Assembly (NCBI GenBank): GCA_038087015.1
Contig: JASBNA010000005.1
Location: 434,001 to 498,000 of the forward strand
Source: Cerrena zonata
Lineage: Eukaryota > Basidiomycota > Agaricomycetes > Polyporales > Cerrenaceae
DNA: 64,000 nucleotides
Direction: 5' to 3'
Shown: one piece after another, positions 14,029 to 61,702 of the stretch
Layout: each line of letters starts with the position of its first letter
Numbering within the stretch: the first letter of the stretch is position 1
Notes under the pieces: model-generated
The model's database searches: none
Seen by the model: the letters and a program-made list of their open reading frames with translations, nothing else
Told to the model about the DNA's origin: nothing
Translations under genes and position numbers: made by a program

Positions 14029-15458
14029 GCTATGTTTCCGTGCCAAAGTCAATAAAGGTTCTATTGTTGTACCATCCTATGCTTCTATTACTTGCATCTG
14101 GTATTGTTTTCCTCTTTTCCTGTTCTCTCGGTTCGCCATAAGGCCACTTCCTTGCTTTCCTATCAGCTTTCTTGCCATCCAGGCTGTACATTTTATTTTT
14201 GCTTTGTCCGTCGCCATCGCTCTGTCCTTTGTACTCATATATAGCCGCAATATCATTGTTACCTGTACCGGGTCAATTTGTTTTCCTTCGTTGGTTGTAG
14301 TCTTCAGAAGCGCCAGGACTCAACGCTTGGAGACATCTATCAGATGCCAGATTGGTTTTGTGTCCCTCCCCAGAAGTTCACCGTGGATAGAACGGAGAAT
14401 GGAGAGCGTTGTCCACGGGAGGATAATTATTGCGATGGCGATGTCAAAACGTGTTGTATGTAGCAATTGCGAAGATGCCTCATGGTATTCATAGGTTCTT
14501 AGAACACCTCATTGTGCTTCGTATCTTTCCAAGGAAGGTAAGTGACAGCGCCCAAAGAACCCCTTCTCTTGAACTCTATCGCGATCGGTCGAGCGCGTTC
14601 TCGTGTGAGGATATCCTGATATCGATTATTTTGAGGATAGGACTCAATTTTGAAATCCAGCCAAGGAACTCACTGTATCACTCTATCTGTGTACGATACA
14701 GAATGTGGCATACTATGATGTGATCCATTTAGCGGAAGTGAGGACTTGGATTGATAATCGCTGACACAACATCAATCACCACCGCCGGATCCTGGTCCAT
14801 ACTCTCAGTGCACTCGCCGTTGCGGATATATCTGCGGACGAGAGACAGGTGCCATATTACAGACACCCGAGACACGAGCCAAGTACACCGATCACACCTC
14901 CGCAAATGTGTAAGGCAACATGGCCTAAAAAGCATGCTAAATCATGCTGATGCAAGTGCGTCTGGTGTTGCCGAAAGGAATGTAAGATGAACGAACAGCC
15001 ATCTGGAGACATGACCGGCACGGCGGTATTATTTCAAGGGAGAACACGATGTCAGGTTTAGAATAGGCGACACCACTTCAACGGCGCGGTACGAACCTAG
15101 CGTCACTTGTCACATTGGAATGTTCTATAGCGAAGTCCCGCAAAAAATTCGGTATAAATGGTTTGAACGAATAGATAGAGCAAAACACTTGACAATTCCT
15201 TCCTACAACAAACAAGTCAAAGCGTGTGAGAGCAAAGCGAAAGCGATATTGTGGGTATAAAATCTATAAGGATAATTTTAACACAGATAAAGACTAGGAA
15301 TACTTGTGACTTACAATATGCTACACAATCATACGTTTGATCTTGTATATCCCTTCCCGAGCGACTGCGACCGTGTCGTAGACCACTCGTTCAGGCACCG
15401 ACTCGTTACGCGAACGCAGCCGCCAGCGCAGAGTAGATTCGGATAGACCAGCTTGAAT
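13996..15458. repeat. 1463-bp tract identical to 30329-31791
   Basis: From the last codons of partner A through the intergenic region into exon 5 of kinase B, the sequence matches 30329-31791 without a difference that I could find by line-by-line reading. Just outside both ends the paralogous sequences differ at several percent of positions. The block is best explained by recent gene conversion or unequal exchange. Confidence 0.88.
14029..15320. other. Intergenic region between partner A and kinase B (tail to tail)
   Basis: No complete gene. Left part: degenerate sequence found after every partner gene. It includes a stretch translating to AMAMSKRV and then FPRKVSDSAQ in different frames, and matches a 79-aa ORF at 39791. 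Right part (15203-15314): a likely 3'-UTR intron of kinase B, donor GTAAGT 7 nt after the stop codon, acceptor TTGTAG. Several small ORFs here look like remnants. Confidence 0.5.
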
Positions 15459-16654
15459 CTCGCGGAACATGTCGAAAGCAGCTTGAGCTGTTGGGCGTCT
15501 GAGGGGATCTTCGTGGGTCATGGAGCTAACCAAAGGCGAAAGAAATTCGAGTCCATAGTATTTCTAAGGGGACCTTTAGCGCAGTGAAAGAAAGCAGAAG
15601 ACAAGGGAAAGTACATACTTGAACGAATTCTTTGCGATACAGATTACCAAGAATGAATATATCTAGGGGAAATGGGTTGTATGGTTGGCGGTCGTCAAGT
15701 TCTGGAGGCTCCTTATCCCTCCCTTTGGTTCCAATCGCTAGAGGCACAACCCCAGGGTCGAAACAGGAGGAGAGGCCGAAGTCGATGAAATAATATTTAA
15801 CTGGATGGTCCTGACGAGTAAGGTAAGGCGCGTCGTGAACACCATCCTCAAGATAATCGAGCTGGACCGGATGGTGTCCTTTAGGAAACAAGGGTTCTCC
15901 GTCCATCATAATATTGGCAGCGGCACAGTCACTACATTGTGTCAACTCGAAAGTTGCGAATCAAGTCAAACGAACCTACCGATGTGCAACTCCTTGACGA
16001 TGTATGAAACACAAGCCCTAAGAGCTTAAAGGTTCAGTTGTAAGTTTCCCTCAGACAGATAAACAACTCACCTCCAGCGTTTGAGAAATAAAATCCACTA
16101 CCTCTCCGATCGTTCGTAATTCTGGGTCGTCGAAGGGTCGCAAATACTTCATAACCAGGATTGCTTTGGAGCGATCATGCGCATCCTCTATAGCTTCAAA
16201 AATGGGTACGCAATGGTTGGTCGGATCTTTCAGTACACTGTCTCTTGACAAAAGTCGAGCGATTGGGATTTCGTTGTCAGAACGAGAGACACTCTTGAGC
16301 ATCACCCGAGTGCCATCCGACAGACGAGTCGCATCTATCACCTTGGATATCTGGGTGTAACTTCTTAGCATAATGGGGAGAATGGTCATAAGCAGCACGT
16401 CGTACCATAGAACAGATTGAATCCTCACAAAATGTTGGGTCACGATTCGTCCCCAGCCACGAAGGGCGCCATCCGGGCTGAAAACGCGGTCGTAAAAGAT
16501 AACCCTTGGTTTTAAGATAATCATATCGTTCTCGCCAGAATACCTCATGTGAAAGTAGATTCCAGCGACCTTCTTCTGTTTGTTTCCTGTATCTTTCTAC
16601 TTGGTCGGGGGAACACAACGCATAGGACGGAAGATGAGACTCGTCGACACTCAT
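15321..16654 (-). CDS. AgaK1-like protein kinase B
   Basis: Predicted Ser/Thr-type protein kinase of 373 aa, cytosolic as far as visible. Exons: 16406-16654, 16072-16350, 15980-16017, 15619-15931, 15321-15563. Residues 1-83 form a family-specific N-terminus (FWRERY, GWRPSWLGTN). K102 in VMLK matches the ATP-binding Lys; no glycine-rich loop is recognisable. VAHRD with D190, N195 and DFG 239-241 form the catalytic core; PPE 264-266 replaces APE, and LDIFILGNLY is subdomain IX. The tail LRWRLRSRNESVPERVVYDTV is unique to the family. The 38-nt exon 3 ends within the Arg codon of HRD. The pattern fits the Agaricomycete AgaK1/FunK1-like kinase expansions. The partner gene starts 574 bp away on the other strand. 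Confidence 0.9.
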
Positions 16655-16780
16655 TCTGTCCTAGAAGATATGATATGATGTTTGCGTCAATACAGTTCAT
16701 AGAGAGCAGACATGTAGGAGTTAAACATGCAAGTGTCAGTCCGTGCTAGGGTTCGTGAAATGAGTACTACCGCCCTATTA

Positions 16781-17114: not shown

Positions 17115-17142
17115 TCGTGTACATGGGAGAAATCAAGCTGGC

Positions 17143-17228: not shown

Positions 17229-18412
17229 ATGTACTCTGCGTTGGATATCACTGGGCTTGTCCTAGGCATACTCGGTCTTTCTGGGACAGTTATGCTAGTC
17301 CGCTATTTGCTCCCCAAACACCGAATTGCATCCTTAGAACGGGCTCATGCTACAGCATATTGCTTGTATCAATGTAGCGTCTCCGAAGGCCTTCTGTTGC
17401 CTGATGAACAAAAATTGCTGCGAGAAACGCTGCTGAAGTAAATATTGCCAGTTTTGAGATTCAAAGTCACCTAACCTCTTCTTCTATCAGAACACGGATG
17501 GATCTGAACGAGGTGAAAAACGATGTCACCTGCCTTGGTGGTACATGGGGCAAGATCTTCTCGACCCTGAGGAACATATATCGCAGCCTGAGCAAGATTA
17601 ACACCTCGATCCATTCGATTTGCGTACAGGTTGCTGTAAGACGCCACGTCCACTTTAATCTACATATCGAGTTATTTTCTGACGCCGCGCCCGGATAGTC
17701 GTCTAGCGAAAAAGGCAAGGAGAGACTGGAGAAGAATGGGATTCCTTACAAACCTTGCATGTTCCCGCTGGCCACCACTGTCTTTATGGAATCCTTCAAA
17801 ATGGGAGATCATGGTGATACAATAAGCATACATCAACTGTTTCCCTCGCAACAAGGTATGATGGGTATTATGTTATTTTACAATGACACAGCTTAACCGT
17901 CCGTAGATCTGCCTCACATCTTATCCACCAATATCCCTAACGACATCGAATCTGTCCCTTGCTCTGAAAATATCAGATTCGGTTCGCCTTCTCCTCGACA
18001 CGCTCCCCAGCATCGCGACTCTGTCTCCTCTATAGCCACGACAGTGGTAGAGGAATCGTCCTCCTGCGATAGTCATCCAGCTATTGCCGCAGGCACCTCT
18101 ACAAAACATTGCGATACTGAACCGGAGAAGAACGAGGTGAATGCGTCACCGTCACTAGGTTTTCTTCTAGCGGCGTTACAGAAGGGAGTTGACTCGAGCA
18201 ATGCAGTCAGCAACTGCTGCACAGACTTACAATGGCGAGTCAATTTACTCCAAGCGGTGTCAAATTCTCTACATAGTTCGGAGTCGCAGGGCTCAGACTA
18301 CTCGGCCGACTTGGAACAGTGCAAAGAGGACCTTTCGGCAGTAGTGAGACGTCTGTCGAAGGTTTCGGATATCTGGGCTCGTCGCGAGACAGGTCCCATG
18401 TTACCGATTTGA
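17229..18412 (+). CDS. Kinase-partner membrane protein B
   Basis: Predicted 338-aa protein of unknown family; exons 17229-17437, 17491-17635, 17699-17855, 17907-18412. Residues 5-27 form one hydrophobic, Gly-rich helix (LDITGLVLGILGLSG), followed by a basic YLLPKHRIAS and two amphipathic helical segments (exons 1-2, with CLGGTWGKIF). Exon 3 has GIPYKPCMFPLATT. Exon 4 is Ser/Thr-rich with APQHRDSVSS and an acidic follow-up (TTVVEESS), then a helical C-terminus (DLEQCKEDLSAVVRRLSKVSDIW) ending TGPMLPI. Topology suggests an N-terminal membrane anchor with a cytosolic tail. It is head to head with kinase B, so the two may be co-regulated and act together. Confidence 0.82.
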
Positions 18413-19943: not shown

Positions 19944-21289
19944 CTACACCATCATACGTTTAATCTTGTAGATCCCTTCTCGAGCGACAGCCACTGTATC
20001 ATACACCACTCGCTCAGGCACCGACTCTTTACGCGAACGTAACCGCCAGCGTATGTTGGACTCGGTTAGACTAGCCTGTATTTCGCGAAACATGCTGTAA
20101 GCAACTTCAGCTGTAGGGCGGTCCTTGGGATCTTCCTTGGTCATAGAGTCTATTAACGGCCCAAGAAATTCGAATCCATAGTATTTCTACCAACAATAAT
20201 AATAAGTCGTGTAAGGGCACGTAAGCAGCAAAGAGCAAATGGAGTCAAAAACATACCTCGACAAATTCTTTGCGATACAGATTACCGAGAATGAATATGT
20301 CTAGAGGAAACGGATTGTACGGTCGATGATTGTTAAGTTCTGGGGGATCTTTATCCCTCCCTTGATCCCCAATTACCAAGGGAGTGACTCCAGGGTCGAA
20401 ATACGACGAAATGCCGAAGTCAATAAAGTAATATTTGACTGGATGATCCTGACGGGAGAGGGAAGGTGCATAATGAATACCATCCTCAAGATAGTCGAGG
20501 TGAACCGGATGATGACCCTCAGGAAATAACGGATCTCCGTCCATCATGATATTTGCAGCGGCGCAATCTCTTGTCTCTGTCAACACCGGGAATACATGGA
20601 TAATTAGAAAGACAAACCTGTGTGCGACTCCTTGACGATGAATAAACCATATGCCCTATGTATCCGAATGTTTCGTCAAACGTCTTCGAATCGGCGAATG
20701 TCATACCTCGAGGGTTTGGGAAATAAAATCCGCTACTTCTCCAACGGTACGAAGTTCTGGTTTATTAAACGGACGCAAGTATTTCATGACAAGAATGGCT
20801 TTCGATTGATCAATTGGATCCTGAAGAACCTGGTACACAGGTACACAGTGATTGGCCGGGTTATTCACGACCTCATCCCTTGACAGAAGGCGTCCGATTG
20901 GAATTTCGTCACCAAGATGAGAGACAGTCTTGAGCATCACCCGAGTGCCATCTGTCTGTCGAGTTGCATCCATTACCTTGGAAATCTAGGCATACTTGCT
21001 TAGCATTTGGATTGGAGCAAACATGAGCAACGCATCGTACCACAGAATGGATTGAATCCTCACAGTAATGAGGGTTGCGATTTGTCCCTAACCATGAGGG
21101 AGTCCATTCAGGTCTAAATCGTGGCCGTAGGACATATCCTTGACTCTTAAGATAGTCATATCGTTCTCTCCAAAAGACTTCCCAAGAAAGGAGGTCCCAA
21201 CGACCTTCTTCCGTGCGTTTCTTAAACTTTTCCACTTCCTCGGGCGAGCACACTGCATAAAAGGGAAGGTCCGTTTCGTCGACGCTCAT
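19944..21289 (-). CDS. AgaK1-like protein kinase C (orphan)
   Basis: 373 aa; exons 21041-21289, 20707-20985, 20618-20655, 20257-20569, 19944-20186. The kinase core is complete: MLK, VAHRD, DFGISS, DPPEL. Exon 1 ends in SV instead of SM. Distinct from B-type kinases by PIGRLLSRDEV and a YYFIDFGISSYF activation segment start; closest to kinase G, its segmental duplicate. There is no partner gene upstream. The region where one should be (21560-21690) passes directly from promoter-like sequence into the sequence usually found downstream of a partner, so the partner was deleted. Confidence 0.88.
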
Positions 21290-22386: not shown

Positions 22387-23719
22387 TTATACAATCATTT
22401 GCTTGATTCGGTAAATTCCTTCTCGTGCTACAGCGACGGTGTCGTAAACCACTCTTTCGGGTGCGGTTTCTTTATAAGAACGTAATCGCCATCGCAAAGT
22501 TGACTCAGTCAAACTAGCCTGAATCCCTTGGAAGATTGCATAGCAGGCTTGGGCGGATGGACGATTATTGGGGTTAACTTGAAGCATGGGTACGGTCAAC
22601 GCATTGAGGAAATCAAGACCATGATATTTCTACAAGTGCATTAAGTAAATATGCAAATGAAGCACGGGAAAAACTCACTTGTACAAATTCGTGAAGATAT
22701 AAATTACCGAGTATAAATATGTCTAGTGGGAAGGGATTATATGGATCTGAGTCCGATAGTTCAGGAGGTTCCTTATCTCTGCCCTTCGTTCCAACAACAA
22801 GAGGGACATCACCACCTTGGAAACGTGACGAAAGACCGAAGTCGATGAAGTAATATTTGACGGGGTGGTCCTGACGATTTAGGGCTGAGATTTCATGAAC
22901 TCCGTCAGGACTGTAGTTCAGGCGAACGGGATGGTGTCCTTGAGGGAATAGGGAGCGAGCATCCATCATGATATTCGCTGCCGCGCAATCTCTATGTGAT
23001 GTAAGACCAACAAAGTATGGAGAACAGGGTGGGACCAACTGACCTGTGTGCGACTCCATGAGCATGAATGAAACAGAGTCCCTATGTAACGCAATTGTCA
23101 ATGGTTGAGTATGATGGAGAGCTTTAATCTTACCTGCAAAGTTTGCGAGATAAAATCGACTACCTCTCCAATTGTACGCAGCGGTGGATTATCGAACGGG
23201 CGCAGGTAAGGCATTACAATCATTCCTTTAGAGGAATCGTGAGGATCGTCCAGAACGTCAATGATCGGTACACAGTGATTCGTTGGATCCTGTAATAACT
23301 CTTTGGATGATAAGAAGCGGCCAATGGCTATCTCGTCGGATGCGCGTGAGACAGTCTTGATGGTGACGCGAGCACCGTCAGATATTCGAGTAGCATCAAC
23401 GATGATATGTTTCTAGCGAGCGAGTCCTCTCAGCACTTTGATCGGTGGAGATGTGTTGAGTACGTCATACCATAGAAAGAATAGAGTCCTCACAGAAAAA
23501 GGGATCATAATTTGTTCCAATCCAAGAGGGGGTCCAGTTGGGTGCAAACCGTGGTCTTAGTTGGTACCCATGTTCTTTAAGAAAGGTAAATCTCTCCTGC
23601 CAGAACACCTCATAAGACAGAAGACTCCATAGGCCCTGGTATGTGTCCTCCGCGTATTTAGCTGCTTGCTCTGCCGAGCATGTTGCAAACGATGGAAGAC
23701 GAAGAGTATCGCCGGTCAT
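22387..23719 (-). CDS. AgaK1-like protein kinase D
   Basis: 373 aa; exons 23471-23719, 23134-23412, 23044-23081, 22679-22991, 22387-22629. A more diverged family member: exon 1 starts MTGDTLRLPSF and has NWTPSWIGTN; exon 2 starts KHIIVDATR with VTIK as the lysine motif. The catalytic VAHRDCAAANIMMD, DFGLSSRF and EPPEL are all present, so it should be catalytically competent. The equally diverged partner D starts 429 bp away on the other strand, which suggests that pair members evolve together. Confidence 0.88.
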
Positions 23720-24148: not shown

Positions 24149-25334
24149 ATGTCCTCGACCACACAAACTGATACCCCGTCGTTCTTCGATATTAGTGGCT
24201 TTGTCTTCGAGCTACTTGGCATTGCCGGGACTTTCCAAATCATTTGTGTCATCATTTTCTACTATTTTCCAAGGCGTAGATTGCATGGTCTGGAAACAAC
24301 ATATGCGGAAGCCTACTCCCTTTACCATTGCGGCTTGGAGGAAGGTGTATTGGACTCAGACAAACGACGCATAGAGGAAAGTCTGTTACGGTACATTTAC
24401 TCTCTCTTTCGGAGATGACTCGAGCTGAAAGCCGCATGCACATAGAACCAGAAGAAAAATCACCCAAGTACGTTCTGAGGTATTCTGTCTTGGGGGCTTC
24501 TGGCGGCAGGTCTTTGCCATTTTTGGAAGACTGTCTCAGAAATTCAGTTATTTGGATGCTGCAGTGAAGGAGCTGTGCGCAGATATTGCTGTAGGTATTC
24601 ATTCTTACATGTGTGGACCGTACTCAACATACCGCGACATTAGTCCAGCAGCCAGAAAGGCCGACGTGATCTCGAGGCGAGAGGGCAGTCTTATACACCG
24701 TGTATGCTTCCCTTGATGAGATCTGTCCCGATTACGCTCGGTCCTACCGGCACGTATACGCGACCTACTCGTGGTGCCGACCAGCCTCACAATCCGTATA
24801 CTCGTATGTCGTTCATGTTTTTTGGTTGTTGTCGTTATTGTAATCCTTCTTTTAGAATCTGACTCTCCACATTGCGCCTTGACGCCACATCAGCTTCAGG
24901 GTCACCATAGCACCGAGCCAGATTCTACACCTCCATTTGCATCCCACTCTGCTTCAATTGATTTCAGAAGATCTCCAGTGCACAGAGACTCGTTGTGCTC
25001 TGTGTCGACTTCTTCGACGGCTGTAAACACGGACTCTGTACAACTGGGCGAGCTCGGGTATCAGCAAGCCCCAAGTCCAGATATCTCCCAAACGACTCCG
25101 TTAGCCGAAGATCTCAAGAAAACCATCGATCCAACCATCCGGATCGATGCGCGTTACAAAGATATACATCATCTCATGGAATTGTTATTATTCAAACTGC
25201 ATCACCTCCCCGAGCTTTGCCAGAAAACCGAGGAGAGAGATATATCGGACGAGTTCTCGGCCTTCGAATCTCGTCTGTCCAAGCTCCAACATACTTGGAC
25301 ACCCTCGTCAAGACCACCTATACTGCCACTTTAA
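24149..25334 (+). CDS. Kinase-partner membrane protein D
   Basis: 341 aa; exons 24149-24390, 24446-24590, 24644-24803, 24856-25334 (1026 nt, frame closed). Exon 2 is recognisable only in the frame giving FCLGGFWRQVFAIFG, which matches CLGGTWRKIF of partner F. The N-terminal helix (ISGFVFELLGIAGTFQIICVIIFYY) is longer and more hydrophobic than in B/F. Exon 3 has QSYTPCMLPL, exon 4 has SPVHRDSLCSVSTSSTAV and a C-terminus ending PPILPL. Despite low overall similarity all intron positions match the B/F group. Divergently paired with kinase D. Confidence 0.78.
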
Positions 25335-27194: not shown

Positions 27195-28530
27195 CTACAC
27201 AATCATCCGTTTAACCCTGTAAATCCCTTCTCGAGCAACAGCCACTGTATCATACACCACTCGCTCAGGCACCGACTCGTTACGCGAACGCAACCGCCAT
27301 CGTAGGGTAGACTCGGCTAGACCAGCTCGAATTCGCCGAAACGTGTTGAAAGCAGCTTCAGCTGTTGGGCGACTCCGTGGATATTCGTGAGTCATGGACT
27401 TGATCAGCGGCTCCAGAAATTCGAATCCATAATATTTCTAGCCATACAATATGAGACGAAGGCAGTATACAGGACACAGTAAAAACATACTTCAAGAAAT
27501 TCTTTGCGATACAAGTTACCGAGAATGAAGATGTCTAGAGGAAACGGGTTGTATGGTCGATGGTCGTCAAGTTCTGGAGGTTCCTTATCTCTTCCTTTAG
27601 TTCCAACCACTAGTGGAACAACTCCAGGATCAAAGCAGGAGGAGAGGCCGAAATCGACAAAGTAGTATTTAACCGGATGGTCCTGACGAGACAGGCAGGG
27701 TGCATCGCGAGCGCCGTCTTCAAGATAGTCGAGGCGAACCGGGTGGTGTCCTTTAGGAAACAAGGGCTCTCCGTCCATCATAATATTGGCAGCGGCACAG
27801 TCCCTACAATCGTGTTAACTCAGAAATTGTGAATAAAATCATGATGCGCTTACCGATATGCAACGCCTTGGCTATGTATGAAGCATAAACCCTAGGGGCA
27901 CGAGATTTTAGCCGTAAGCTTAACATTTAGACAAAGGGTTAGCTCACTTCCAACGTCTGAAACACAAAGTCTACTGCTTCTCCGATCGTTCGTAATTCTG
28001 GATTGTCGAAGGGCCGTAGATATTTCATGACCAGAATTGCTTTGGAGCGATCATGCGCATCTTCGATAGCTTCAAAAATGGGTACACAATGGTTGGTCGG
28101 ATCTTTCGATACACTGTCTCTTGACAAAAGTCGAGCGATTGGGATTTCGTTGTCAGAACGAGAGACACTCTTGAGCATCACCCGAGTGCCATCCGACAGA
28201 CGAGTTGCATCAATTACTCCGGATATCTATGTGTACCTTCTTAGTGTCCCGATGAAGTCGATCATAAGCAACACATCGTACCATGGAAGAGATTGAGTCC
28301 TCACAAAATGTAGGGGTACGGTTTGTCCCCAGCCACGATGGGGTCCATCCGGGTTGAAAGCGTGGTCGCAGAAGATAACCCCTAGCTTTAAGATAATCAT
28401 ATCGTTCTCGCCAGAAGACCTCAAATGAAAGTAAGTCCCAGTGACCATCTTCTGTTTGTTTCCGGTATAATTCTACCAGGTCTGGTGGAGCTAATGCATA
28501 GGACGGAAGATGAGACTCATCGACGCTCAT
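27195..28530 (-). CDS. AgaK1-like protein kinase E, HRD changed to YRD
   Basis: 373 aa; exons 28282-28530, 27948-28226, 27854-27891, 27491-27803, 27195-27437. The micro-exon 3 reads GLCFIHSQGVAYR, so the catalytic-loop histidine is Tyr in this copy only (GCATATCG instead of GCACATCG). The catalytic Asp and Asn (DCAAAN), DFG and the ATP-binding Lys are intact. YRD loops do occur in active kinases, so activity cannot be excluded. Exon 1 has SYALAPPDLVELYRKQTEDG, diverged from the SYALCSPDQVERY of its sisters. Paired with partner E, 627 bp away. Confidence 0.88.
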
Positions 28531-29157: not shown

Positions 29158-30361
29158 ATGTATTCAGCATTGGATATAACTGGGCTCGTCCTCGGCATTC
29201 TTGGCCTTTCTGGCACAGTTCTGCTTGTCCGATATCTACTACCTAAACACCGAATTGCATCCTTAGAACGAGGTTATGCTAGTGCATATTCATTATATCA
29301 ATGCAGCATCGCAGAAGGTCTTTTGTTACCTAGCGAGCAAAAACTGATACTACGACGGTAAATGTTTATAGCCTCGAGAATAGATCCCATCTGATCGCCT
29401 CTTCCCGTCATATAGTACTCGGACACAACTCAACGATGTGAAAAACAATGTGACTTGTCTCGGTGGTACATGGGGAAAGATACTCTCGACTCTGAAAATC
29501 ATATACCGGATTTTGAGCACAATCGACAGTACGATCCATTCGATTTGTATACAGATTGCTGTAAGACACCGTGTCCATTTTCCGTGTTACCGATTCTTCA
29601 TTTGACACTATATACGGATAGTCATCCAGCCAGAAAGGCAAGGAAAGACTTAAGGAGCATGGTATTCCTTATGAACCATGTCTCTTCCCGCTGGCCACTA
29701 CCGTCAATTCTCTGTCAATGGAGTCGTTCAAAATGGGCGATCATTGCGATCCAGTTACAATACATCAGCTGTTTCCTTCACAACAAGGTATGATATGGTT
29801 CATCCCATCTCAAGTTGACTTCGCTAACATGATACGTCTACAGAGCTATCACATATCTCTTCCAATACCTCTGACGACGTCGCATCCGTTCCTAACTCTG
29901 AACATATCAGATCTATATCACCTTTACCTCGAAATGCGGCTCCTCGGCATCGCGACTCCGTCTCATCCACAGCCACGACAGTGGTCGAGGAATCATCTTC
30001 CTGCGATGTTCGTCTAGATATCGCCGCAGACACGACCCCAGAGCATTATGGTACCGAATCGGCGGTAAGGGGCGAGTTAGATCCCTCGCGTTTGTTACGC
30101 CTTCTTCCAGCATCATCCCAGAAAGAGGCCGACCCGAGTGATGCGGTGAACAGCTATTGCACAGACTTGCAAGGGCGGCTCAATCTACTTCAATCGGTGT
30201 TAAGCCCCCCACAAACCTCGGAGTCACCTACAACCCAGAACTCAAACTACTCGGCCGATTTGGAAAAGTGTAAGGAGGACCTCTTGGCGGTAATGGGTCG
30301 TCTGTCGAAAGTTTCAGATATTTGGGTTCGTCGTGAGACAGGTCCCGTGTTGCCCATCTGA
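29158..30361 (+). CDS. Kinase-partner membrane protein E
   Basis: 342 aa; exons 29158-29357, 29416-29560, 29622-29787, 29844-30361. Exon 1 is 9 nt shorter than usual (loss of three codons before the intron) and exon 3 is 9 nt longer than in B/F, so the frame stays open. N-terminal helix LDITGLVLGILGLSG, exon 2 CLGGTWGKIL, exon 4 APRHRDSVSS and C-terminus ending TGPVLPI. The last codons belong to the 1463-bp identical tract shared with 13996 onward, so the extreme C-terminus is probably a conversion product. Head to head with kinase E. Confidence 0.82.
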
Positions 30362-42844: not shown

Positions 42845-43433
42845 ATTCGATTTCAGAAACCCTTCGATGCTTTCAAATCATGTATTTATACGCCGCTATG
42901 TGATTGTAAGGCTACATATGTTTCATACAAGCGATATGCGTGAACGCTATATCTCACTGCAGCCCATTGAAATCTAATCCCAAGGGCCATGGTGTCGCCA
43001 AATATGAGTTAATGATCTATCATCTCGTCTATCGTGGGACGGGGCAGGGCACTCCGGATAGAATGATACAATGAATATCGCATGAAGACAGCCTGATATT
43101 CTTCCCCCTTGCGAGCCGAGAAACCCACATTCAGCGGTCACAACGCACGATTTCATGGTGTTGGCCATAGAACTTCATCTGCTGCTTTATGTTGGGGGCA
43201 AAGTTAGTTGATCATGCCCGCACGGTGACAAGTGAGTAGGGTGAGTGGGACATACGTGTCCACAGAACAAGCTATCGTAAAGCCACGACAGCGATGAAGT
43301 GATACCAATTATAGATACGGCATTGTTCCTAGCAACATTAAAGCACAGCGGGATAGCGAGATTGGAAGGATATAGATTTCTGCAGACCGTTGTGAATTAA
43401 CTTCAATCACGGTTCACGATAGAACTTACGGTT
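42845..43433. other. Convergent intergenic region, O-methyltransferase / kinase H
   Basis: Both flanking genes end here. No recognisable coding sequence; a GTAAGT donor directly after the stop of kinase H matches the 3'-UTR intron pattern of the family. Confidence 0.5.
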
Positions 43434-45371: not shown

Positions 45372-46706
45372 CTACAAAATCATACGTTTAATCTTGTAGA
45401 TCCCTTCCCGAGCGACCGCAACTGTGTCGTAGACCACTCGTTCAGGCACCGACTCGTTACGCGAACGCAGGCGCCAGCGCAGAGTGGACTCGGATAGACC
45501 GGCTTGAATCTCGCGGAACATGTCGAAAGCAGCTTGAGCTGTTGGGCGTCTGAGGGGATCTTCGTGGGTCATGGAGCTAACCAAAGGCGAAAGAAATTCG
45601 AGTCCATAGTATTTCTAAGGGGACCTTTAGCACAGTGAAAGAAAGCAGAAGACAAGGGAAAGTACATACTTGAACAAATTCTTTGCGATACAGATTACCA
45701 AGAATGAATATGTCTAGAGGAAACGGATTGTATGGTTGGCGATCGTCAAGTTCTGGAGGCTCCTTATCTCTCCCTTTGGTCCCAATAGCTAGAGGTACAA
45801 CTCCAGGATCGAAGCAGGAGGAGAGGCCAAAGTCGACAAAGTAATACTTAACTGGATGGTCCTGACGAGTAAGGTAAGGCGCGTCGTGAACACCATCCTC
45901 AAGATAATCGAGTTGGACCGGATGGTGTCCTTTAGGAAACAAAGGTTCCCCATCCATCATAATATTGGCAGCAGCACAGTCACTACATTGTGTCAACCCG
46001 AAAGTCGCAAATGAGGTCAAGACGAGCCTACCGATGTGCGACCCTTTGACTATGTATGAACCACAAGCCCTAAGAGCTTAAAGATTTGGTTGTAGGCTTT
46101 CGTTAGACAGATAAATGACTCACCTCCAGCGTTTGAGAGATAAAATCCACTACCTCTCCGATCGTTCGTAATTCTGGGTCGTCGAAGGGTCGCAAATACT
46201 TCATAATCAGGATCGCTTTGGAGCGGTCATGTGCATCCTCGATAGCTTCAAAAATGGGTACGCAATGGTTAGTAGGATCTTTCAATACAGTATCTCTGGA
46301 TAGCAGGCGAGCGATTGGGATTTCGTCACCCGAGCGGGATACGCTCTTGAGCATCACCCGCGTACCGTCCGATAGGCGAGTCGCATCTATTAGCCCAGAT
46401 ATCTAGATGTAGCTTCTTAGCATGATGGTGAGGGTGATCATAAGCAGCACGTCGTACCATGGAACGGATTGAATCCTCACAAAAGTTAGGGTGACGATCT
46501 GTCCCCAGCCACGAAGGGGTCCATCCGGGTTGAAAACGCGGTCGTAAAAGATAACCCTTGTTTTTGAGATAATCGTATCGTTCTCGCCAGAATACCTCAT
46601 GTGAAAGTAGGTCCCAGCGACCTTCTTCTGTTTGTTTCCTGTATCTTTCTACTTGGTCGGGTGAGCACAGCGCATAAGACGGGAGATGAGACTCGTCGAC
46701 ACTCAT
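45372..46706 (-). CDS. AgaK1-like protein kinase I (orphan)
   Basis: 373 aa; exons 46458-46706, 46124-46402, 46032-46069, 45670-45982, 45372-45614. Very close to kinases B and F (exon 1 nearly identical to B; exon 5 and the last intron almost identical to B). Ends RMIL where sisters end RMIV. Catalytic motifs intact (VAHRDCAAAN, DFGLSSCF, EPPEL). First gene of the third copy of the duplicated block; the partner that should start about 570 bp upstream is missing. Confidence 0.9.
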
Positions 46707-47902: not shown

Positions 47903-49233
47903 CTATTTAATCATATGTTTAATCTTGTAGATCCCTTCTCGAGCAACCGCTACCGTGTCATAGACCACTCGCTCAGGGACAGACTCTTTCCGCGAACGTA
48001 ACCGCCAGCGTAGAGTTGACTCGGCTAGGCCAGCTTGAATCTCGCGGAACATGCTGTGAGCAGCTTCGGCTGTAGGGCGTTCCTGTGGTTCACGTTGGGT
48101 CATTGAGCTAATCAATGGCTGAAGAAATTCAAATCCATAGTATTTCTAAGCAAACATCATAAGAGAGAATGAAGGTAAAGATCAGAAAACACAACGTACT
48201 TCAACAAATTCTGTGCGATACAAGTTACCAAGAATGAAGATATCGAGAGGAAATGGGTTGTAGGGTCGATGGTTGTCGAGTTCAGGAGGTTCCTTATCTC
48301 GTCCTTGAGTTCCAACCACTAGCGGATTGACTCCGGGATCGAAGTACGACGAGATGCCGAAGTCGATAAAATAATATTTGACTGGATGGTCTTGACGGGA
48401 TAGGTAGGGTGCGTAGTGCATTCCATCCTCAAGGTAGTCGAGCTGAACCGGATGATGACCCTGAGGAAATAAAGGTTCTCCGTCCATCATGATGTTTGCA
48501 GCGGCACAGTCCCTGGTTTTTGTCAACGCAAGAAACGCAGAGGGCGAGGAGGACGAACCGATGTGCGACTCTTTGACGATGAAGAAATGATATGCCCTGT
48601 TTATCCTGAAGGTTTGTCACGGCCTTTGATTTGATTCCGTACAGACGTACCTCGAGAGTCTGCGCAATACAATCCACTACTTCTCCAATGGTACGAAGTT
48701 CTGGGTCGTTGAATGGCCGCAAGTACTTCATGACAATGATGGCCTTGGATTTATCTATCGGATCTTGAAGAACTTGGAAAATAGGTACACAATGATTTGT
48801 CGGGTCGTTCGCCACATCATCTCTTGACAGAAGACGTCCGATTGCAATTTCGTCGCCGAGATGAGAAACAGTCTTGAGCATTACACGAGTACCATCAGAC
48901 AAACGGGTTGAATCAATGACTTCAGACAGCTACGGATAGCCCCTTAGCAATAGAATGTGGAAAGTCATGAGCAGTACGTCGTACCATAGAACAAATTGAG
49001 TCCTCACAGTAATGAGGGTTGTGGTTTGTCCCTAGCCATGAGGGAGTCCATCCAGGTCTAAATCGTGGTCGTAAGAGATATCCTCGACTCTGAAGATAGT
49101 CATAACGTTCCCGCCAAAAGACCTCCCAGGCGAGGAGGTCCCAGAGGCCTTCTTCTGTCCGCTCTCTGAATCTTTCTGCTTGTTCGGGCGAACACACTGC
49201 ATAGAACGGAAAGTTCGGTTCGCTGACATTCAT
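47903..49233 (-). CDS. AgaK1-like protein kinase J (orphan)
   Basis: 373 aa; exons 48985-49233, 48651-48929, 48559-48596, 48200-48512, 47903-48145. C/G-type kinase, but exon 1 (MNVSEPNFPFYAVCSPEQAERF) is closer to the left-edge kinase. Catalytic core intact: VAHRDCAAAN, DFGISSYF, EPPEL. The C-terminus ends KHMIK instead of KRMIV, and the GT of the post-stop donor seen in other copies is lost (ATAAGT). In place of a partner gene, an O-methyltransferase fragment begins only 155 bp upstream of its ATG, so its promoter has been rebuilt, although a CArG-like box (49355-49364) is kept. Confidence 0.89.
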
Positions 49234-50507: not shown

Positions 50508-51730
50508 TCACACTGGTAAAAACGAAGTGTTTCGAGAATGACTCCAGGCGCGAGGTAGTGGTATCTTCGAGATAATAGACGGTCGGTCATGGTCGCCAGT
50601 ATTGTCCTGAACGGGATTTCCACCCATCTGCTGTTGTCGCATGATGGATGATAGTTCATCGAAACGGCGATGCAAGGTCTCTAGTTCACGTTGGAAGGAG
50701 ATACTGGAGTCAGTCTCAGGTTCTGCTGTGAACACGTGGGATGATGGTCGATGAATATAAGTTTTCTTCAGGAGCATGTCAGCGATGACTGTTCCCACAG
50801 ACCGTGGCGTTTTGAACGCCGGAATGGTACGTCCTGAGAGCAGTTCACCACTCTCGAGATCAGGTGCAGCATAGAACCCTTCAGTTTCCACGACGGTGCT
50901 AGAGGTTAACACAGAGGAGATCGAATCTCGGTGTGTACGAGGAGGAGAACATATCGAGGGTGCTCGTGACCGAGTGACATGTGTATCCGACGCCTGGTGA
51001 GTATCTGTAGAGACAGTTCTGGGCGGACAATCACTTGCGAGATGTTCTACAATCCGATAGAGCCTATCAGTATTCTTCTCCTTCGGAAAGTGAGTACAGA
51101 TCATCTTACCGTTGGACCCCGGACCAAGAGGATTAACAGTCTCTAATGATTGCCGACCATTCATGATGGTCGCCTCAAGAGGGAGCATGCAAGGGTTGTA
51201 TTGACGACCTCTAGCTTCAAGTTCTAACTTAGCCTTCTCGCTTGTAGACTGGGAAACACGAAATACGAATAAGCATCCACATGAATGCAACATGAGGAGA
51301 TTAGACTCTTACAATGATTGTAATGCGCAATTCCTTCATTGATCGATCGATATGGCTGATCCTGCGTGTCAACGGGAGATTGCTGAACAACGCTCGGATT
51401 TGGAGCCATATGTTACCAAGGGAGACAACCTCAGTACGGACCACATTTATATCGCGTCGGGCACTGGAGATAGCATAAGACTGATGCAAAAGAAGGAATA
51501 TAAGTTGAACACTACTTCTTCAACTTCTCTTCCAATCTATCCGATTCATCCTTGATGAGACCCTCCTTCACTCCACAACGGAAGAGACAATACACATCTG
51601 AAAAGGCTTCCTCAAGGGCCTTGAGACGATTTTTGGGAAGGAAATTAGAGCAGGTTGAGCAAAGAAGTTGAAAGACCCCACAGCCCAGCACGCCAAGGAT
51701 GAAGCCGCTAAGGTCAAAAAAGAGGCCCAT
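50508..51730 (-). CDS. Kinase-partner membrane protein K
   Basis: 347 aa; exons 51516-51730, 51313-51463, 51110-51248, 50508-51046 (1044 nt, frame closed). Diverged member: FFDLSGFILGVLGCGVFQLL helix, FLPKNRLKALEEAF, exon 2 SLGNIWLQIRALF, exon 3 GRQYNPCMLPLEATI, exon 4 PRTHRDSISSVLTSSTVVETE. The C-terminal half differs from the B group and ends SFLPV, so only the last LPx is kept. Intron 3 (51047-51109, 63 nt) has no stop and a length divisible by three, so intron retention would be tolerated. The only partner on the minus strand; its kinase starts 442 bp away. Confidence 0.77.
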
Positions 51731-52172: not shown

Positions 52173-53492
52173 ATGAACGCCGATCTCCCTTCTTATGCAT
52201 TTTGCACACCAGAACGAGCGGAATACTACGCAAAAGAGACTGAAGAAGGTCACTGGAGTCTTCTCTCGTACGAGGTTTTCTGGAGAGAACGATGTGTTCA
52301 CCTAAAGAGTAGAGGATATCTACTACGTCCCCGATTTCACCCAGGATGGGTTCCGTCATGGCTGGGGACAAATCGCGACCCTGACTTTTGTGAGGACTCT
52401 ATCCGTTCTATGGTGCGACGTACTCACAAATAATGATATACAAGCGCTAAGAAGATGGGTTAGGAGTCTTGGGTTATAGATGCGACCCGCAGCTCTGATG
52501 AATCTCGTGTCATGATCAAGCTAGTCTCAAAGACTAACAACGAAGTTCCTATTGCTAGCTTGCTTTCAACTCCAGAGCTGCTACAAGATCCAACCAATCA
52601 CTGTGTACCTATATTCGATGTCCTCGACGATCCATTAGAGCCCACCAAGGCTTTGTTGGTAATGCCGTATTTACGACCTTTCGATGACCCAGAATTTCGC
52701 ACAATTGGAGAAGTTGTGGATTTCGTCTCCCAGACCCTCGAAGTAGGAATTTATTTCGAGTATACTCGAATAGCTGATTGAGGGACCGGTGCAGGGCCTA
52801 GTTTTCATTCACAAGCAGAATGTTGCTCACCGGTTTGTCTTCACCAGTTGGCTTCTCCTTCTCTTACTAACGGACCACAGAGATTGTGCAGCTCGGAATA
52901 TAATGATGGACGGCCGGCTGTTATTTCCTCAGGGACATCATCCCGTGCGGTTAGACTATCTCGCTGATGGGGTTCGAGACGCACCTTGTCTGAATCGACA
53001 AGACCATCCAGTCAGATACTATTTCATCGACTTCGGTATATCTTCACACTTCAAAGAGGGTGACAGTCTTCTTGTCCTTGGAACGAAGGGGAGAGATAAA
53101 GATCCGCCCGAACTTTCTGAGTATCGGCCGTATAATCCATTCCCACTAGACGTATTTATCCTTGGTAATGTTTATCTCAAAGAATTTGTTGAAGTAAGTG
53201 TCAATTTAGCTATCTGTGATGGTGATGTCACTTATATCCTTTTGTCTAGAAATATTACGGACTTGAATTCCTTCATCCGTTAATCTCCTCAATGACCCAT
53301 CCTACACCGGAACAGCGACCCACAATAGATACTGCCTATAAACAGTTTCAACGAATTCAGGCCGGCTTGTCAGATTCTACTCTACGTTGGCGATTACGTT
53401 CGCGCAAAGAGTCGGTGCCTGAACGAGTGGTTTACGATACGGTGGCGGTTGCCCGAGAAAGTCTTTATCGTCTCAAACGGATCATTGTGTAA
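52173..53492 (+). CDS. AgaK1-like protein kinase K (inverted unit)
   Basis: 370 aa; exons 52173-52412, 52464-52742, 52795-52832, 52881-53193, 53250-53492. The only plus-strand kinase. Starts MNADLPSYAFCTPERAEYY; exon 1 is 9 nt shorter than standard. Exon 2 begins ESWVIDATRSSDESRVMIK. The loop reads VAHRDCAARN (Arg before Asn, closer to classical kinases than the AAAN of the others), then DFGISSHF and DPPEL. Intact. Exon 2-4 sizes equal those of the minus-strand copies, so the whole pair was inverted as a unit after the gene structure was fixed. Confidence 0.9.
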
Positions 53493-56371: not shown

Positions 56372-57702
56372 CTAAATCATCATACGTTTGATTCGATAGA
56401 TTCCTTCGCGAGCAGCTGCCACTGTATCATACACGACACGCTCTGGTGCTGATTCCTGTCGAGAGCGCAATCGCCATCGCAGTGTCGATTCGGTCAAGCT
56501 AGACCGGATCTGCTGAAACATATCAAAAGCTGCGTCTGCCGTGGGTCGATGTTCTGGTTGTAGGTGGACCATAGCTGTAGTTATAGGCTCGAGGAATTCG
56601 AGCCCGGAATATTTCTATAAGCAACCAAGTAAGCATAGCCTCTCAAGAAAGTCAGGCCCAGACATACCTCGAGGAATTCCCTACGATATACATTACCAAG
56701 GATAAATATATCTAACAAGAAAGGATTATATGGTATATCTTCATCAAGTTCTGGAGGGTCCTTGTCTCTTCCCTTCGTACCCACAACAAGGGGTGACATC
56801 CCTTGTTCAAAACGGGTTGAAAGCCCAAAGTCGATGAAATAATATCGAACTGGACGGTCTTGCCGATGTAAATAAGGCGCATCGCGAGCTCCATCATCAA
56901 GGTAGTCCAGTCTAACAGGGTGGTGTCCCTGAGGAAATAAAGGCTGTCCATCCATCATGATGTTAGCCGGAGCACAATCCCTACCTTCGCTTAGTACAAT
57001 GAAAACAAGTAATACAAAAAAAATCCTACCTATGTGCGACTCCTTGGCGATGAATAAAGCTCAGCCCCTAAGACGCAAAAGAAAATCGGTATGCACTTCG
57101 AAATTGAACCTCCAGAATCGTACCTCAAGTGTTTGGTGAATGAAATCTATTACTTCGCCAACGGCTCGAAATTCAGGATCGTTGAACGGTCGTAGATATT
57201 TCATAACCATTAACGATCTCGAAGGATCAATTGGGTCATCAAAGGCATCAAATATTGGTACGCAGTGGTTCATTGGATCCCGAAGTAAGTCATTTCTTGT
57301 CAAATATCGCGCTATGGATATTTCGTTGTCTACTCGAGAGACGACCTTTATCATCACGCGATTGCCATCTGAGGCATGAGTTGCATCCATGACCTTGGAT
57401 TTCTAGCTATATGGTTTAGTACTTGGTATGGACAGAGCACGGGTGTACTGTACCATGGAACGGATGGAATCCTCACAAAAGTTAGGATGACGGTTGGTAC
57501 CTATCCACGAGGGAGTCCACTCAGGTTTGAAACGAGGGCGCAAGATATAGCCTCTATCCTTGAGGAAGTCGAATCTTTCTCTCCAGAACACTTCATAGGA
57601 GAGAAGATTCCAGTTGCCCTGTTCTGTATATTTTGCATATCTTTCTGCTTGTTCTGGAGTTAGAATTGCATAAGACGGGAGATGGGACGTAGTAATGCTC
57701 AT
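56372..57702 (-). CDS. AgaK1-like protein kinase L
   Basis: 373 aa; exons 57454-57702, 57124-57402, 57030-57067, 56668-56980, 56372-56614. L/M subtype: EQAERYAKYTEQGNW, PSWIGTNRHPNFCEDS, PYNPFLLDIFILGNVY and a VAAAREG tail. Catalytic loop HRDCAPAN (Pro before Ala-Asn, unique here), DFGLSTRF, DPPEL; competent by motif. Its partner survives only as a stump at 58281. Kinase M is its closest relative. Confidence 0.88.
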
Positions 57703-58552: not shown

Positions 58553-59883
58553 CTACACTATCATACGCTTGATTCGATATATACCTTCACGGGCGGCCGC
58601 TACCGTATCATACACGACACGTTCTGGTGCTGTCTCCTTTCGTGAGCGTAATCGCCATCGTAATGTTGGTTCGGTCAAACTGGATTGTATTTTCTGAAAA
58701 GTGCGAAAAGCAATCTCTGCTGTTGGTCGATCTTCGGGTTCAGTTTGAAGCATGTCGTCTATGAGGGGCCCGAGAAATTCGAGTCCGTAGTATTTCTAGA
58801 AGATGAGAAATCCAATAAAAGCATAGTGGAGTGAGCGTGAAATTCGAACTAACCTCGGCAAACTCTTTGAGATACACGTTGCCAAGGATAAATATGTCCA
58901 GCAAGAAAGGATTGTAGGGTGTTTCGTCATCAAGTTCTGGCGGTTCTTTGTCTCGTCCCTTCGTTCCCAGAACAAGAGGGGTTTGATTTTCCTCGAACCG
59001 GGATGAAAGGCCAAAGTCAATAAAGTAGTATTTGACTGGCCGTTCTTGACGACTTAAACAAGGAGCCTCATGAAGGCCATCTTCGAGATAGCCCAGCCTC
59101 ACAGGATGGTGACCCTGAGGGAATAGAAGTTGAGCGTCCATCATAATGTTGGCGGAAGCACAATCCCTAACGATTGACAATGATTTGTGCGTTTAATGGA
59201 AAGTGTATCGGGGCACATACCGATGTGCAACACCTTGATTATGAATAAAACATAGACCCTTTGCGTCCATAACGTTAATTATTGGCCGATCTTTATAATT
59301 GATTCTCTCACCTCAAGGGTTTGAAAGATGAAATCTGTCACGTCCCCGATTGTCCGGAGTTCAGGATTGTCAAACGGACGCAGGTACTTCATCACCAACA
59401 TGGCCAGAGAAGGGTCGATTGGATCATCGAAAATATCCAGGATTGGTACACAGTGATTGGTTGGGTCCTGAAGTAGGTTGTCCGTCGATAGAAAACGGGC
59501 AATGGGTATCTCGTCATCCGTTCTTGAAACCGACTTTATCATTACGCGAATACCGTCGGATAGACGGGTGGAATCAATGACTCTGTATTTCTGGAGTTTT
59601 TTTTAGCACTCAAACTGAAATGAGCATGGACGTACCATACCATGGAGCGGATTGAATCCTCGCAAAAATGAGGGTGTCGATTTGTTCCAATCCAGGAAGG
59701 TGACCATCCAGGCTTATAGCGTGGTCGTAGGAGGTACCCTCGACTATTCAGGAAGTCAAACCGTTCTTGCCAGAATATCTCGTAAGAAAGTAACTTCCAA
59801 TTGCCCTGCTCTGTGTACTTCGCATATCTCTCTGTTTGCTCTGGAGAACACAATGCATAAGAAGGAAGATCGCTGGCGCTCAT
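58553..59883 (-). CDS. AgaK1-like protein kinase M
   Basis: 371 aa; exons 59641-59883, 59312-59590, 59221-59258, 58854-59166, 58553-58795. Exon 1 is 6 nt shorter than the standard. Motifs: KYRVIDSTRLSDGIRVMIK, VAHRDCASAN, DFGLSSRF, EPPEL, tail RSRKETAPERVVYDTVAAA. Intact. Partner M starts 652 bp away on the opposite strand, completing the last full pair of the array. Confidence 0.89.
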
Positions 59884-60535
59884 CCCGACTCCGTTGCAAC
59901 GGCTATGTTGGAATCATGCAGGACACATGGCGACTAATGTTCAAGTCGGTCAAGCCTTTCTACACACTTACACATCGGCTACCAAATGTGGAAGGTGGCA
60001 AATGCCGAGGATCAAAACCTTGTGCCGCATGCCAGTGTCAGCCTAAGGCTTCGTCACGGTCATGGGTAAGTACCAGTGCTAGTAGCAGCATGAATAGGAT
60101 GCATCCGAGTCGTGCAAAGCGGTTGATAACCGGTCCTGGAGGATCGCAACCTGATACTATACACGGTGCACTTTCGAAATCCGCATTTTTCTCTTACACC
60201 TCGCTCCCATGGCATAACGCACACCGGCCCAAAGCCAACGTTGACGCTTCTGCCAATGGTTCTCATGATGATAAAATCAAACCGATGGTAGGGCCTATCC
60301 TACCAAAAATGTACAAACCAAGAACATCAACGCAGCATGATAAAAGTACCTCCCTGACTAACTTCACACGCATGGCAGGTGTGGCAGTCGTGAGGCGTAG
60401 CAACGTTCGAATCAGAAATGCGACCCAAACCATAAACAAACAAGAACACCATGCTACTGCATTTAACTCAAGGCCGTTTATTTAATCTTCAATTCCCTCC
60501 CCATCAAATCCCTACTAGTACGAAGCTGACCGACC
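59884..60535. promoter_or_regulatory. Divergent promoter region of kinase M and partner M
   Basis: 652 bp. CCAAATGTGG near 59981 is a possible degenerate CArG-like box. Several out-of-frame ORFs cross the region but none has homology or intron support. Confidence 0.45.
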
Positions 60536-61702
60536 ATGTCATTAGATATCTCCTTCAACATTGCTGGATTGGTCATAGGCATCTTAGGGTTAGGTACCTT
60601 TCAGATGCTCATCTTCGTCATCCGCTCTCTGTTACCACACCATCGTCTTGCTTCTCTCGAAAAGGACTATACCGCTGCTGTAAATCTCTTTGAATGCAGC
60701 CTCGCAGAGGACCTTCTTTTCGATCGCGAGGTCATCCGCATTCGGGAGACCTTAGAAAGGTAGCCATGTAGTCACTTGATCTACATATACTTATCAGGTT
60801 GTCCATCCAGTATTCGTGCTTCCATGAACCTTTTGCATAACGAAGCCATAGGTCTTCGCAGCGTGTGGCAACAACTTTCTGCTATATTTCGCACGATGTC
60901 CTCAGAGCTTGGGGAGTTGTGTGACAGGATCCATGAGGTTCGCGTTGTACTTGCCGTAAGATTTCGCTTTCTGATCTCTTTCCTTTTGCCTGAGTATTTG
61001 CAGTCTAGTAGTCAAAATGGTCGAGCGAGACTTCAGGAAACCGGACGGCGCTATAGACCGTGTATACGTCCATCAACAACGACAAGCTCGAATGCTCGTT
61101 CTTCACGAATGACTTATGTCATGCCGATGGGATCACAATCTTCCCCTTCAGACGGTATGTCCTAAACTACTTGATGTGAGGAACCTAACTCTTATACTTA
61201 TACCGTAGTCCTAGATCGTTCTGCTGGTAGTGATATTGTTCCGAATCAACCGCGATGCCTCGATGCGCCTCCCTCTGGGAGTAGTAATCATTCTACGTCG
61301 TCTCTGCCTTCGACTCAACCCCCCGCCCGTCGTGACAGTACCCATTCCACTGTATCTACAGCAGATACAATGGTCGATCTCGAGGCTTCAGATATTACAA
61401 AGTCTAGCGCTGATCAAGCTACCCCGAGCCACACATCGGGCACATCGTTGAACCCGCAGACATTGCCTATCCTTGACCGTTCTGATACTCTATCGGCCGC
61501 AAATTCTCTAAGAAAATATTGTGCAGATCTAGTTGATCATGTTGACTCTATCCAATCATTCCTCAGTCTTCCATCTAGTCGCCTGGATCCTGACGTTGAC
61601 ATCGATGGTCTCAGCGAGGGGCTGTCAGCGTCGAAGGCCCACCTAGCATCCTTATCTCGATTTTGGAGTCGTCCTGAGACGGGACTACTTTTACCTTCGT
61701 AA
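60536..61702 (+). CDS. Kinase-partner membrane protein M
   Basis: 337 aa; exons 60536-60759, 60811-60955, 61004-61154, 61209-61702 (1014 nt). Helix FNIAGLVIGILGLGTFQMLI, SLLPHHRLASLEKDY, exon 2 RSVWQQLSAIFRTM, exon 3 GRRYRPCIRPSTTT (diverged from PCMFPL), exon 4 PPARRDSTHSTVSTADTMVD, C-terminus FWSRPETGLLLPS. The R-D-S motif and the W-x-R-x-E-T-G end are conserved although most of the linker is not. Exon 2 is 145 nt, as in most members. Confidence 0.8.

What the first reader, a model, noticed from the sequence alone, without database searches (positions are those of the whole stretch)
15321..61702. Array of divergently paired kinase and membrane-partner genes
Thirteen kinase genes and nine copies of a second, unrelated family alternate, and every surviving pair is head to head (units B, D, E, F, G, K, M; unit A split by a LINE). 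Pairing survives strong divergence (units D, K and M are far from B and F) and an inversion (unit K). Amplification of a two-gene cassette, rather than of a kinase alone, suggests the two products work together. I know of no described system combining an AgaK1/FunK1-like kinase with such a partner.
Basis: partly seen in the sequence, partly recalled or inferred. Interest (0 to 1): 0.9.

Follow-up and report, generated by a model that had tools for sequence, protein, structure and literature searches.

The report
Amplified kinase and membrane-protein gene pairs
A wood-decay fungus carries a tandem array in which a protein-kinase gene and a little-known membrane-protein gene were duplicated together, back to back, many times, so the two may form a signalling pair, although they could also just be inherited neighbours.

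Summary
The array is real. The window is from Cerrena zonata. It holds 13 kinase genes (one crosses the left edge) and 8 partner genes, not 9. All 8 pairs are head to head; seven have gaps of about 430-650 bp, and unit A is split by an 11.3-kb LINE with a 15-bp direct repeat. Two more pairs and a further partner exon lie just upstream. All 15 kinase models are open; one of 10 partners (A, the split one) has a premature stop. Kinase and partner sequences co-diverge (r=0.93; re-assorted trees rejected) and both are under purifying selection. Partners have one N-terminal membrane segment, helices and, in a fast-evolving linker, a motif RDSxxS found in 10 of 10. Against obligate cooperation: five array kinases and a relative on contig C11 lack a partner, and two distant partner relatives (C14, C147) have no listed kinase. 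Cassette amplification is firmly supported; joint function is plausible but unproven, because linked duplication alone gives the same trees. My guess is a membrane-anchored adaptor and substrate of its neighbouring kinase. FunK1 (PF17667) was tested and not met.

The parts
1..454 (-). kinase A, 5' part; runs off the left edge to C5:433128
   Evidence: spliced model K_A over the fetched flank, 373 aa, open
710..12012 (+). LINE insertion splitting unit A, with 15-bp direct repeats at 710-724 and 11998-12012
   Evidence: direct repeat; endonuclease, reverse transcriptase and RNase H in ORF 6531-11699
12839..14025 (+). partner A, 4 exons, one premature stop in the last exon
   Evidence: the public model P0004 ends at the stop
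15324..16654 (-). kinase B
17229..18409 (+). partner B
19947..21289 (-). kinase C, no partner
22390..23719 (-). kinase D
24149..25331 (+). partner D
27198..28530 (-). kinase E (public protein P0007, identical); catalytic loop YRD instead of HRD
29158..30358 (+). partner E (public protein P0003, identical)
31657..32988 (-). kinase F (public protein P0006, identical)
33559..34749 (+). partner F (public protein P0002, identical)
36311..37637 (-). kinase G (public protein P0008, identical)
38227..39411 (+). partner G (public protein P0001, QCA50_004835, identical)
43437..44765 (-). kinase H, no partner (the 373-aa model ends at 43440; one more codon before the stop)
45375..46706 (-). kinase I, no partner
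47906..49233 (-). kinase J, no partner
50511..51730 (-). partner K, 3 exons
52173..53489 (+). kinase K, inverted unit (public protein P0009, identical)
56375..57702 (-). kinase L, no partner
58556..59889 (-). kinase M (model start 59889; first ATG 59883)
60536..61699 (+). partner M

Best explanation
A two-gene cassette of a soluble protein kinase and a divergently transcribed single-pass membrane protein was duplicated at least nine times in the Cerrena lineage, by local duplication with occasional loss of the partner. Shown: the cassette, its co-divergence and the selection on both genes. Inferred: the partner's C-terminal part faces the cytosol, its helical region holds the neighbouring kinase at a membrane, and the kinase phosphorylates the conserved RDSxxS/T motif in the partner's flexible linker, so that each pair is a small membrane-based signalling unit expressed from one shared intergenic promoter. 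The confidence covers this mechanism; the cassette history alone I would put at about 0.95.
For: Seven compact head-to-head pairs in the window plus X and Y, gaps about 430-650 bp, and pair A now split by its LINE. Co-divergence r=0.93, Mantel p=0.0002; 20 of 20 random re-assortments rejected by AU for both genes; of 8 single-pair swaps, 8 rejected by AU for partners and 7 for kinases. dN/dS 0.08-0.13 for kinases and 0.16-0.30 for partners in the 13 comparisons with kinase dS below 1.5. Catalytic K102, E110, R189, D190, N195, D239, F240, E266, D279 and R316 invariant in 54 chosen rows, H188 and G241 nearly so, and a confident kinase-fold model. 10 of 10 partners: one hydrophobic segment near the N-terminus, more K/R after than before it. 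RDSxxS present in 10 of 10, with R206 D207 S208 S211 T215 V217 invariant in the alignment inside a linker of higher dN/dS. The only modelled partner with a stop is the one cut off from its kinase (one case).
Against: Linked duplication explains the co-divergence without interaction. Six kinase-only copies have open models; four of them (C, I, J, L) gave dN/dS 0.07-0.13, as low as paired ones (H was saturated, C11 not computed). Distant partner relatives at C14 and C147 have no listed kinase of this family. Partner data reject the exact kinase tree by AU (0.010; SH 0.81), through the order of X, Y, D and of K, M; by the milder SH test six of eight single swaps stand for kinases and five of eight for partners. 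Kinase E has YRD for HRD, so not every copy need be active. No clear shared promoter motif. Seven kinase positions are fixed in the 10 paired kinases and in at most 15% of 48 outgroup rows, but most are also kept in the unpaired copies, so no pairing signature was found. No expression or interaction data. The partner model is low-confidence (pLDDT 50).
Confidence: 0.4

Rival explanations
1. Passive linkage. The two genes happened to be neighbours when a tandem array began to grow; the duplicated segment carried both. Each product has its own role and selection keeps each for its own sake.
For: Co-divergence is expected from linkage alone; kinase-only copies C, H, I, J, L and C11 persist with open models; partner relatives exist without a listed kinase; relatives of the kinase share scaffolds in other species, which suggests arrays there, while the partner searches of the same protein database gave only Cerrena zonata and one unnamed contig protein.
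Against: Pairing survives at saturated dS between the lineages X/Y/D, K, M and A-G and an inversion; inside the array the reverse, a partner without a kinase, is seen at most once (C5:421.6 kb, only its first exon read).
Confidence: 0.4
2. Self/non-self or killer-antidote pairs: the membrane protein is a membrane-active executor kept in check or triggered by its own kinase, and the array is a fast-changing repertoire.
For: Local amplification, fast-evolving linker, hydrophobic N-terminal helix followed by helices.
Against: No HeLo or other executor family among Pfam matches (10 partners at E<=5; five N-terminal pieces at E<=10; HMMER filters drop most matches above about 0.1); no fold match at E<=0.001 (weak model); low dN/dS in the helical part; kinases without partners are tolerated.
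Confidence: 0.06
3. Co-expression only: the shared intergenic region is a bidirectional promoter that keeps two functionally related but not physically interacting genes on at the same time.
For: Constant divergent layout and similar gap length.
Against: Intergenic sequence is little conserved between lineages: 9-mers in three or more lineages 8 (both strands counted) against 0.9 in 20 shuffles, 8-mers 31 against 24.9, 10-mers 0 against 0.
Confidence: 0.14

Closest known systems
Agaricomycete-expanded protein kinase families (AgaK1, FunK1, FslK)
   Same: A kinase family with many members in mushroom-forming fungi, several on shared scaffolds: 490 proteins at E<=1e-10, 120 listed; by recalled taxonomy the listed ones are mostly Polyporales with some Russulales and Boletales.
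   Different: No PF17667 (FunK1 by recall) in six public C. zonata kinases and one composite; AgaK1 has no model here; FslK phylogeny not tested. None of the passages or sections I read describes a paired membrane gene.
Distant partner relatives at C147:10704-11093 and C14:425582-425971 of the same genome
   Same: Similar first two exons: membrane segment, LMP/LLP, then helices; the joined two-exon piece of the C147 gene scores 35.5 bits against the partner profile, best of 2000 local shuffles 15.7.
   Different: About 26-34% identity in the aligned pieces; no kinase of this family listed on either contig.
Receptor-like or membrane-recruited kinases (soluble kinase with a membrane partner; recalled, not compared)
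   Same: Would work alike: a soluble kinase held at a membrane by a single-pass protein.
   Different: The partner has almost no part before its membrane segment (it begins at residue 6-19) and no known domain.

Membership tests
Eukaryotic protein kinase (PF00069) | Pfam match above cut-off (31.7 bits) | tested here: met
   4 of 6 public C. zonata kinases above the cut-off (33.6-37.1 bits), F and E just below (30.3, 31.5); composite 35.4
Eukaryotic protein kinase (PF00069) | catalytic residues and kinase fold | tested here: met
   invariant residues in 54 rows chosen from 120 listed; HRD in 14 of 15 array kinases, YRD in E; model pLDDT 92 and kinase matches in PDB
Eukaryotic protein kinase (PF00069) | glycine-rich loop GxGxxG | tested here: not met
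   0 of 16 models (15 array and C11) have GxGxxG in residues 56-105
FunK1 (PF17667; the equation FunK1 = PF17667 is recalled) | match to the Pkinase_fungal profile | tested here: not met
   none in 6 of 6 public kinases at E<=10 nor in a composite at E<=1; 116 PF17667 matches listed in the genome (107 of 213 candidates scored), none in C5:421-498 kb
AgaK1 | membership in the Coprinopsis-based kinase class | not testable with these tools
   no model or reference sequence held; only labels seen in paper passages
FslK (Zhao 2014, PMC3937382) | clade sister to tyrosine kinases, lacking AARN | not tested
   catalytic loops are DCAAAN in 12, DCAARN in K, DCAPAN in L and DCASAN in M of 15; no tree with FslK rows was made
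Divergent gene pair with shared intergenic region | head-to-head genes with a short common gap | tested here: met
   9 of 10 modelled pairs with a gap of about 430-650 bp, the tenth (A) split by a LINE
Divergent gene pair with shared intergenic region | co-expression | not testable with these tools
   no expression data
HeLo/MLKL-like membrane executors | recognisable N-terminal helical executor domain | tested here: inconclusive
   no HeLo match in Pfam, no significant fold match, but the model is weak
Wider partner-like family (C14, C147 genes) | profile similarity over exons 1-2 | tested here: met
   35.5 bits against 15.7 for the best of 2000 local shuffles, query joined from two exon pieces

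The most novel reading that the evidence does not exclude
Each pair is a private two-component membrane signalling unit, specific to the Cerrena lineage: a single-pass partner that is both anchor and substrate of its own kinase through the RDSxxS/T motif, diversified by duplication into at least four deeply separated pair lineages, which would make the array a readable record of how a kinase and its substrate evolve together.
Probability: 0.25. Interest if true: 0.75.

Novelty: new variant of a known kind. Interest (0 to 1): 0.5.

Why it matters
Mushroom-forming fungi carry large kinase families whose inputs and substrates are, as far as I know, undefined. A kinase that travels with one specific membrane gene, for which no described family was found, through many duplications names a candidate partner for direct testing, and ten diverged natural pairs give an unusual test set for the evolution of kinase-substrate specificity.

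Tried and rejected
Nine partners: only eight found in the window after exon-by-exon and DNA searches. Partner remnants beside the five lone kinases: none; the rows outside known partners have E of 0.11 or more in tblastn, and its DNA rows are kinase ends, a 31-bp inverted match at 12009-12039 and one stretch at 42484-42846. FunK1 membership: not met. HeLo or other executor domain in the partner: no match. PDB relatives of the partner: best sequence E 0.26, best fold E 0.27, neither credible. A conserved bidirectional promoter motif: weak excess of 9-mers only. A pairing-specific kinase signature: the seven positions found are mostly shared with unpaired copies. Partner-like genes upstream of 11 other kinases (nine of this family: C39 two, C92, C31, C4:258 kb, C4:732 kb, C4:2082 kb, C7, C12; two PF17667-type: C16, C26): none recognisable in the flanks held, which for C7, C4:732 kb and C12 are only about 1.7 kb. 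The roughly 25-gene kinase array at C4:355-459 kb could not be read. Homologues in other fungi: two protein-database searches gave only C. zonata and one unnamed contig protein, P0005; that search needs shared five-residue words, scored a capped candidate list, and would miss partners of low identity. Genome searches score only the best candidates, so absence on C14, C147 or elsewhere is not strict. A self-BLAST of the window failed to list the 1463-bp identical block that one search shows, so its list is incomplete. No title or abstract start in the listings describes such a pair (one search found none; 36, 73 and 95 show only part of their hits).
Full report
Source. Three partner models (E, F, G) and five kinase models (E, F, G, K, Y) are letter for letter public proteins of Cerrena zonata, QCA50_0048xx, on a contig of the same length as C5, 2,072,551 bases. 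The window is C5:434001-498000 of a 55.5-Mb assembly of 171 contigs.

The array. Exon searches and spliced alignments give 15 kinases: A-M in or across the window and X and Y just upstream. All 15 have five exons of 249, 279, 38, 313 and 240 bases (kinase K has 240 in the first) and no internal stop. Ten partners were modelled (X, Y, A, B, D, E, F, G, K, M); nine have four exons and K has three. Only four of the ten turned up as public proteins in two searches: A (ending at its stop), E, F and G. Locus tags alternate kinase and partner for E, F and G: 4830/4831, 4832/4833, 4834/4835.

Layout. Nine of ten modelled pairs are head to head with gaps of about 430 to 650 bp between start codons (start codons of X, Y, D and M). 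The tenth, A, is split: a 15-bp direct repeat stands at 710 and 11998, and the insert carries endonuclease, reverse transcriptase and RNase H domains in one open frame. Unit K is inverted. Kinases C, H, I, J and L have no partner and no remnant; the sequence that copies I and C share with paired units ends about 70 and 110 bp upstream of their start codons, as if the kinase alone had been copied or the partner cut away.

Outside the window. Own-genome searches with partners G, Y, M and K place every clear partner hit at C5:421.6-495.7 kb; one search also lists C147 (E 0.79) and C10 (E 2.9). One C5 hit is an eleventh partner exon at 421611-421811 (E 2.5e-5, 0.0015). No kinase exon was seen in the 1.2 kb to its left, in the six-frame translation of L075 read by eye, and searches list none there. 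The closest kinase outside the array, C11:51630-52949, has an open model. Beside it lies a 313-bp stretch, 71% identical to the region upstream of that eleventh partner and including its first codons, in inverted orientation (C11:53707-54019 against C5:421312-421628, E 6e-36); the start codon is not kept. This suggests, but does not prove, that the C11 copy once had a partner too. Eleven other kinase loci, nine of this family, have no recognisable partner in the flanks held.

Distant partner relatives. Two near-identical genes at C147 and C14 score as relatives: the first two exons of the C147 gene, joined by eye, give 35.5 bits against the partner profile, the best of 2000 local shuffles 15.7. 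No kinase of this family was listed on either contig (both score only their best 110 candidates, of 165 and 153). So the partner probably belongs to a wider, poorly described family that need not be paired.

Trees. The 15 array kinases and C11 fall on one side of a branch (97/90 support), with a Somion occarium protein as next relative and two Panus proteins after it (35 rows chosen by me, midpoint root), so the expansion seems to sit in the Cerrena lineage. The lone kinases are spread over the tree: C and J with A and G, I with B, L with M, H unresolved near the base. If the pair is ancestral, the partner was lost, or left behind, several times. The partner tree shares 5 of 7 splits with the kinase tree. 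The kinase data do not reject the partner tree (AU 0.134); the partner data reject the kinase tree by AU (0.010) but not by SH (0.81). All 20 random re-assortments are rejected for both genes by AU and SH; of eight single swaps AU rejects all for partners and seven for kinases (the K-M swap stands), while the milder SH rejects three of eight for partners and two of eight for kinases.

Selection. In the 13 comparisons with kinase dS below 1.5, dN/dS is 0.08-0.13 for kinases and 0.16-0.30 for partners; these comparisons are not independent. Between the deep lineages dS is saturated or above 1.6. Of the kinase-only copies, C, I, J and L give 0.07-0.13; H is saturated and C11 was not computed. Within the partner, over ten comparisons, the membrane and helical part gives 0.07-0.24 (8 finite), the linker before the motif 0.21-0.79, the 14-column motif block 0.02-0.20 (6 finite, few sites), the linker after it 0.29-0.50 (8 finite) and the C-terminal part 0.17-0.42.

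The partner protein. It has 316-368 residues with one hydrophobic segment starting at residue 6-19 and more K/R after it than before it in 10 of 10, which by the positive-inside rule (recalled) puts the rest in the cytosol. It has no credible Pfam or PDB match. A weak AlphaFold model (mean pLDDT 50, four sequences) shows helices to residue 131, mostly unconfident sequence from 136 to 265 and two C-terminal helices. RDSxxS is present in 10 of 10, preceded by H in nine and R in M.

The kinase. Of six public copies four pass the PF00069 cut-off and two (F, E) fall just short; none matches PF17667. Catalytic residues are invariant in 54 rows chosen from the 120 listed; within the array HRD stands in 14 of 15 and YRD in E. 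The model is confident (pLDDT 92) and matches many kinase structures. There is no GxGxxG loop in 16 of 16 models. The family is broad: 490 proteins at E<=1e-10, several on shared scaffolds, for example eight Panus rudis entries with the contig length 212,973.

Recent exchange. A block of 1463 identical bases joins the end of partner A to the end of kinase B (13996-15458) and, equally, the end of partner E to the end of kinase F (30329-31791). It points to very recent exchange between units, or to an assembly fault; dS in the last kinase exon is low (B-F 0.07).

Literature. Searches for FunK1, AgaK1, Cerrena zonata, fungal kinomes, Polyporales kinases, divergent kinase genes and fungal innate immunity showed no description of such a pair in their listings. 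I read the abstract, part 1 of 2 of section 4, and section 9 of PMC3937382, and single passages of PMC4704728, PMC13214342, PMC4215621 and PMC3777111. A table passage of PMC4704728 lists one Coprinopsis 'AgaK1 protein kinase' with values 5.9 and 7.1 under the two bacterial challenges. The library lacks most subscription papers, and the Coprinopsis genome paper is not held.

Verdict. The duplicated unit is a gene pair. That the products work together is the best single mechanistic reading but is about as likely as passive linkage on present evidence. The missing evidence is neighbour data from other fungi and expression or binding data.

Noticed in passing
window 710-12012: An 11.3-kb LINE with a 15-bp direct repeat and an open 1722-aa frame interrupts the intergenic region of pair A; partner A is the only modelled partner with a premature stop.
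   Followed up: yes
window 13996-15458 and 30329-31791: 1463 identical bases at two inter-unit junctions: recent exchange between units or an assembly fault.
   Followed up: partly
L035/L071, C11:53707-54019: Remnant of a partner upstream region and first codons beside the only close kinase found outside the array, inverted.
   Followed up: yes
L076 (C147:10600-11100) and L077 (C14:425750-425960): Two near-identical distant relatives of the partner with no listed kinase of this family on their contigs.
   Followed up: partly
window 27198-28530: Kinase E has YRD in place of HRD in the catalytic loop, alone among the 15.
   Followed up: partly
window 41913-42362 and 49615-50067: Two O-methyltransferase-like fragments between units; the second is below the Pfam cut-off.
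   Followed up: no
window 53994-55629: Open frames with a weak F-box-like match (below the Pfam cut-off); by eye a similar frame stands at 62586-63032 (no Pfam match).
   Followed up: no
G000 C4:355-459 kb: A second, more diverged array of about 25 related kinases with a strand change in the middle; what lies between the genes was not read.
   Followed up: no
Dentipellis fragilis EVG20_g9647 and g9649: Two related kinases with one gene number between them, both with contig length 9307; the gene between could be a partner.
   Followed up: no
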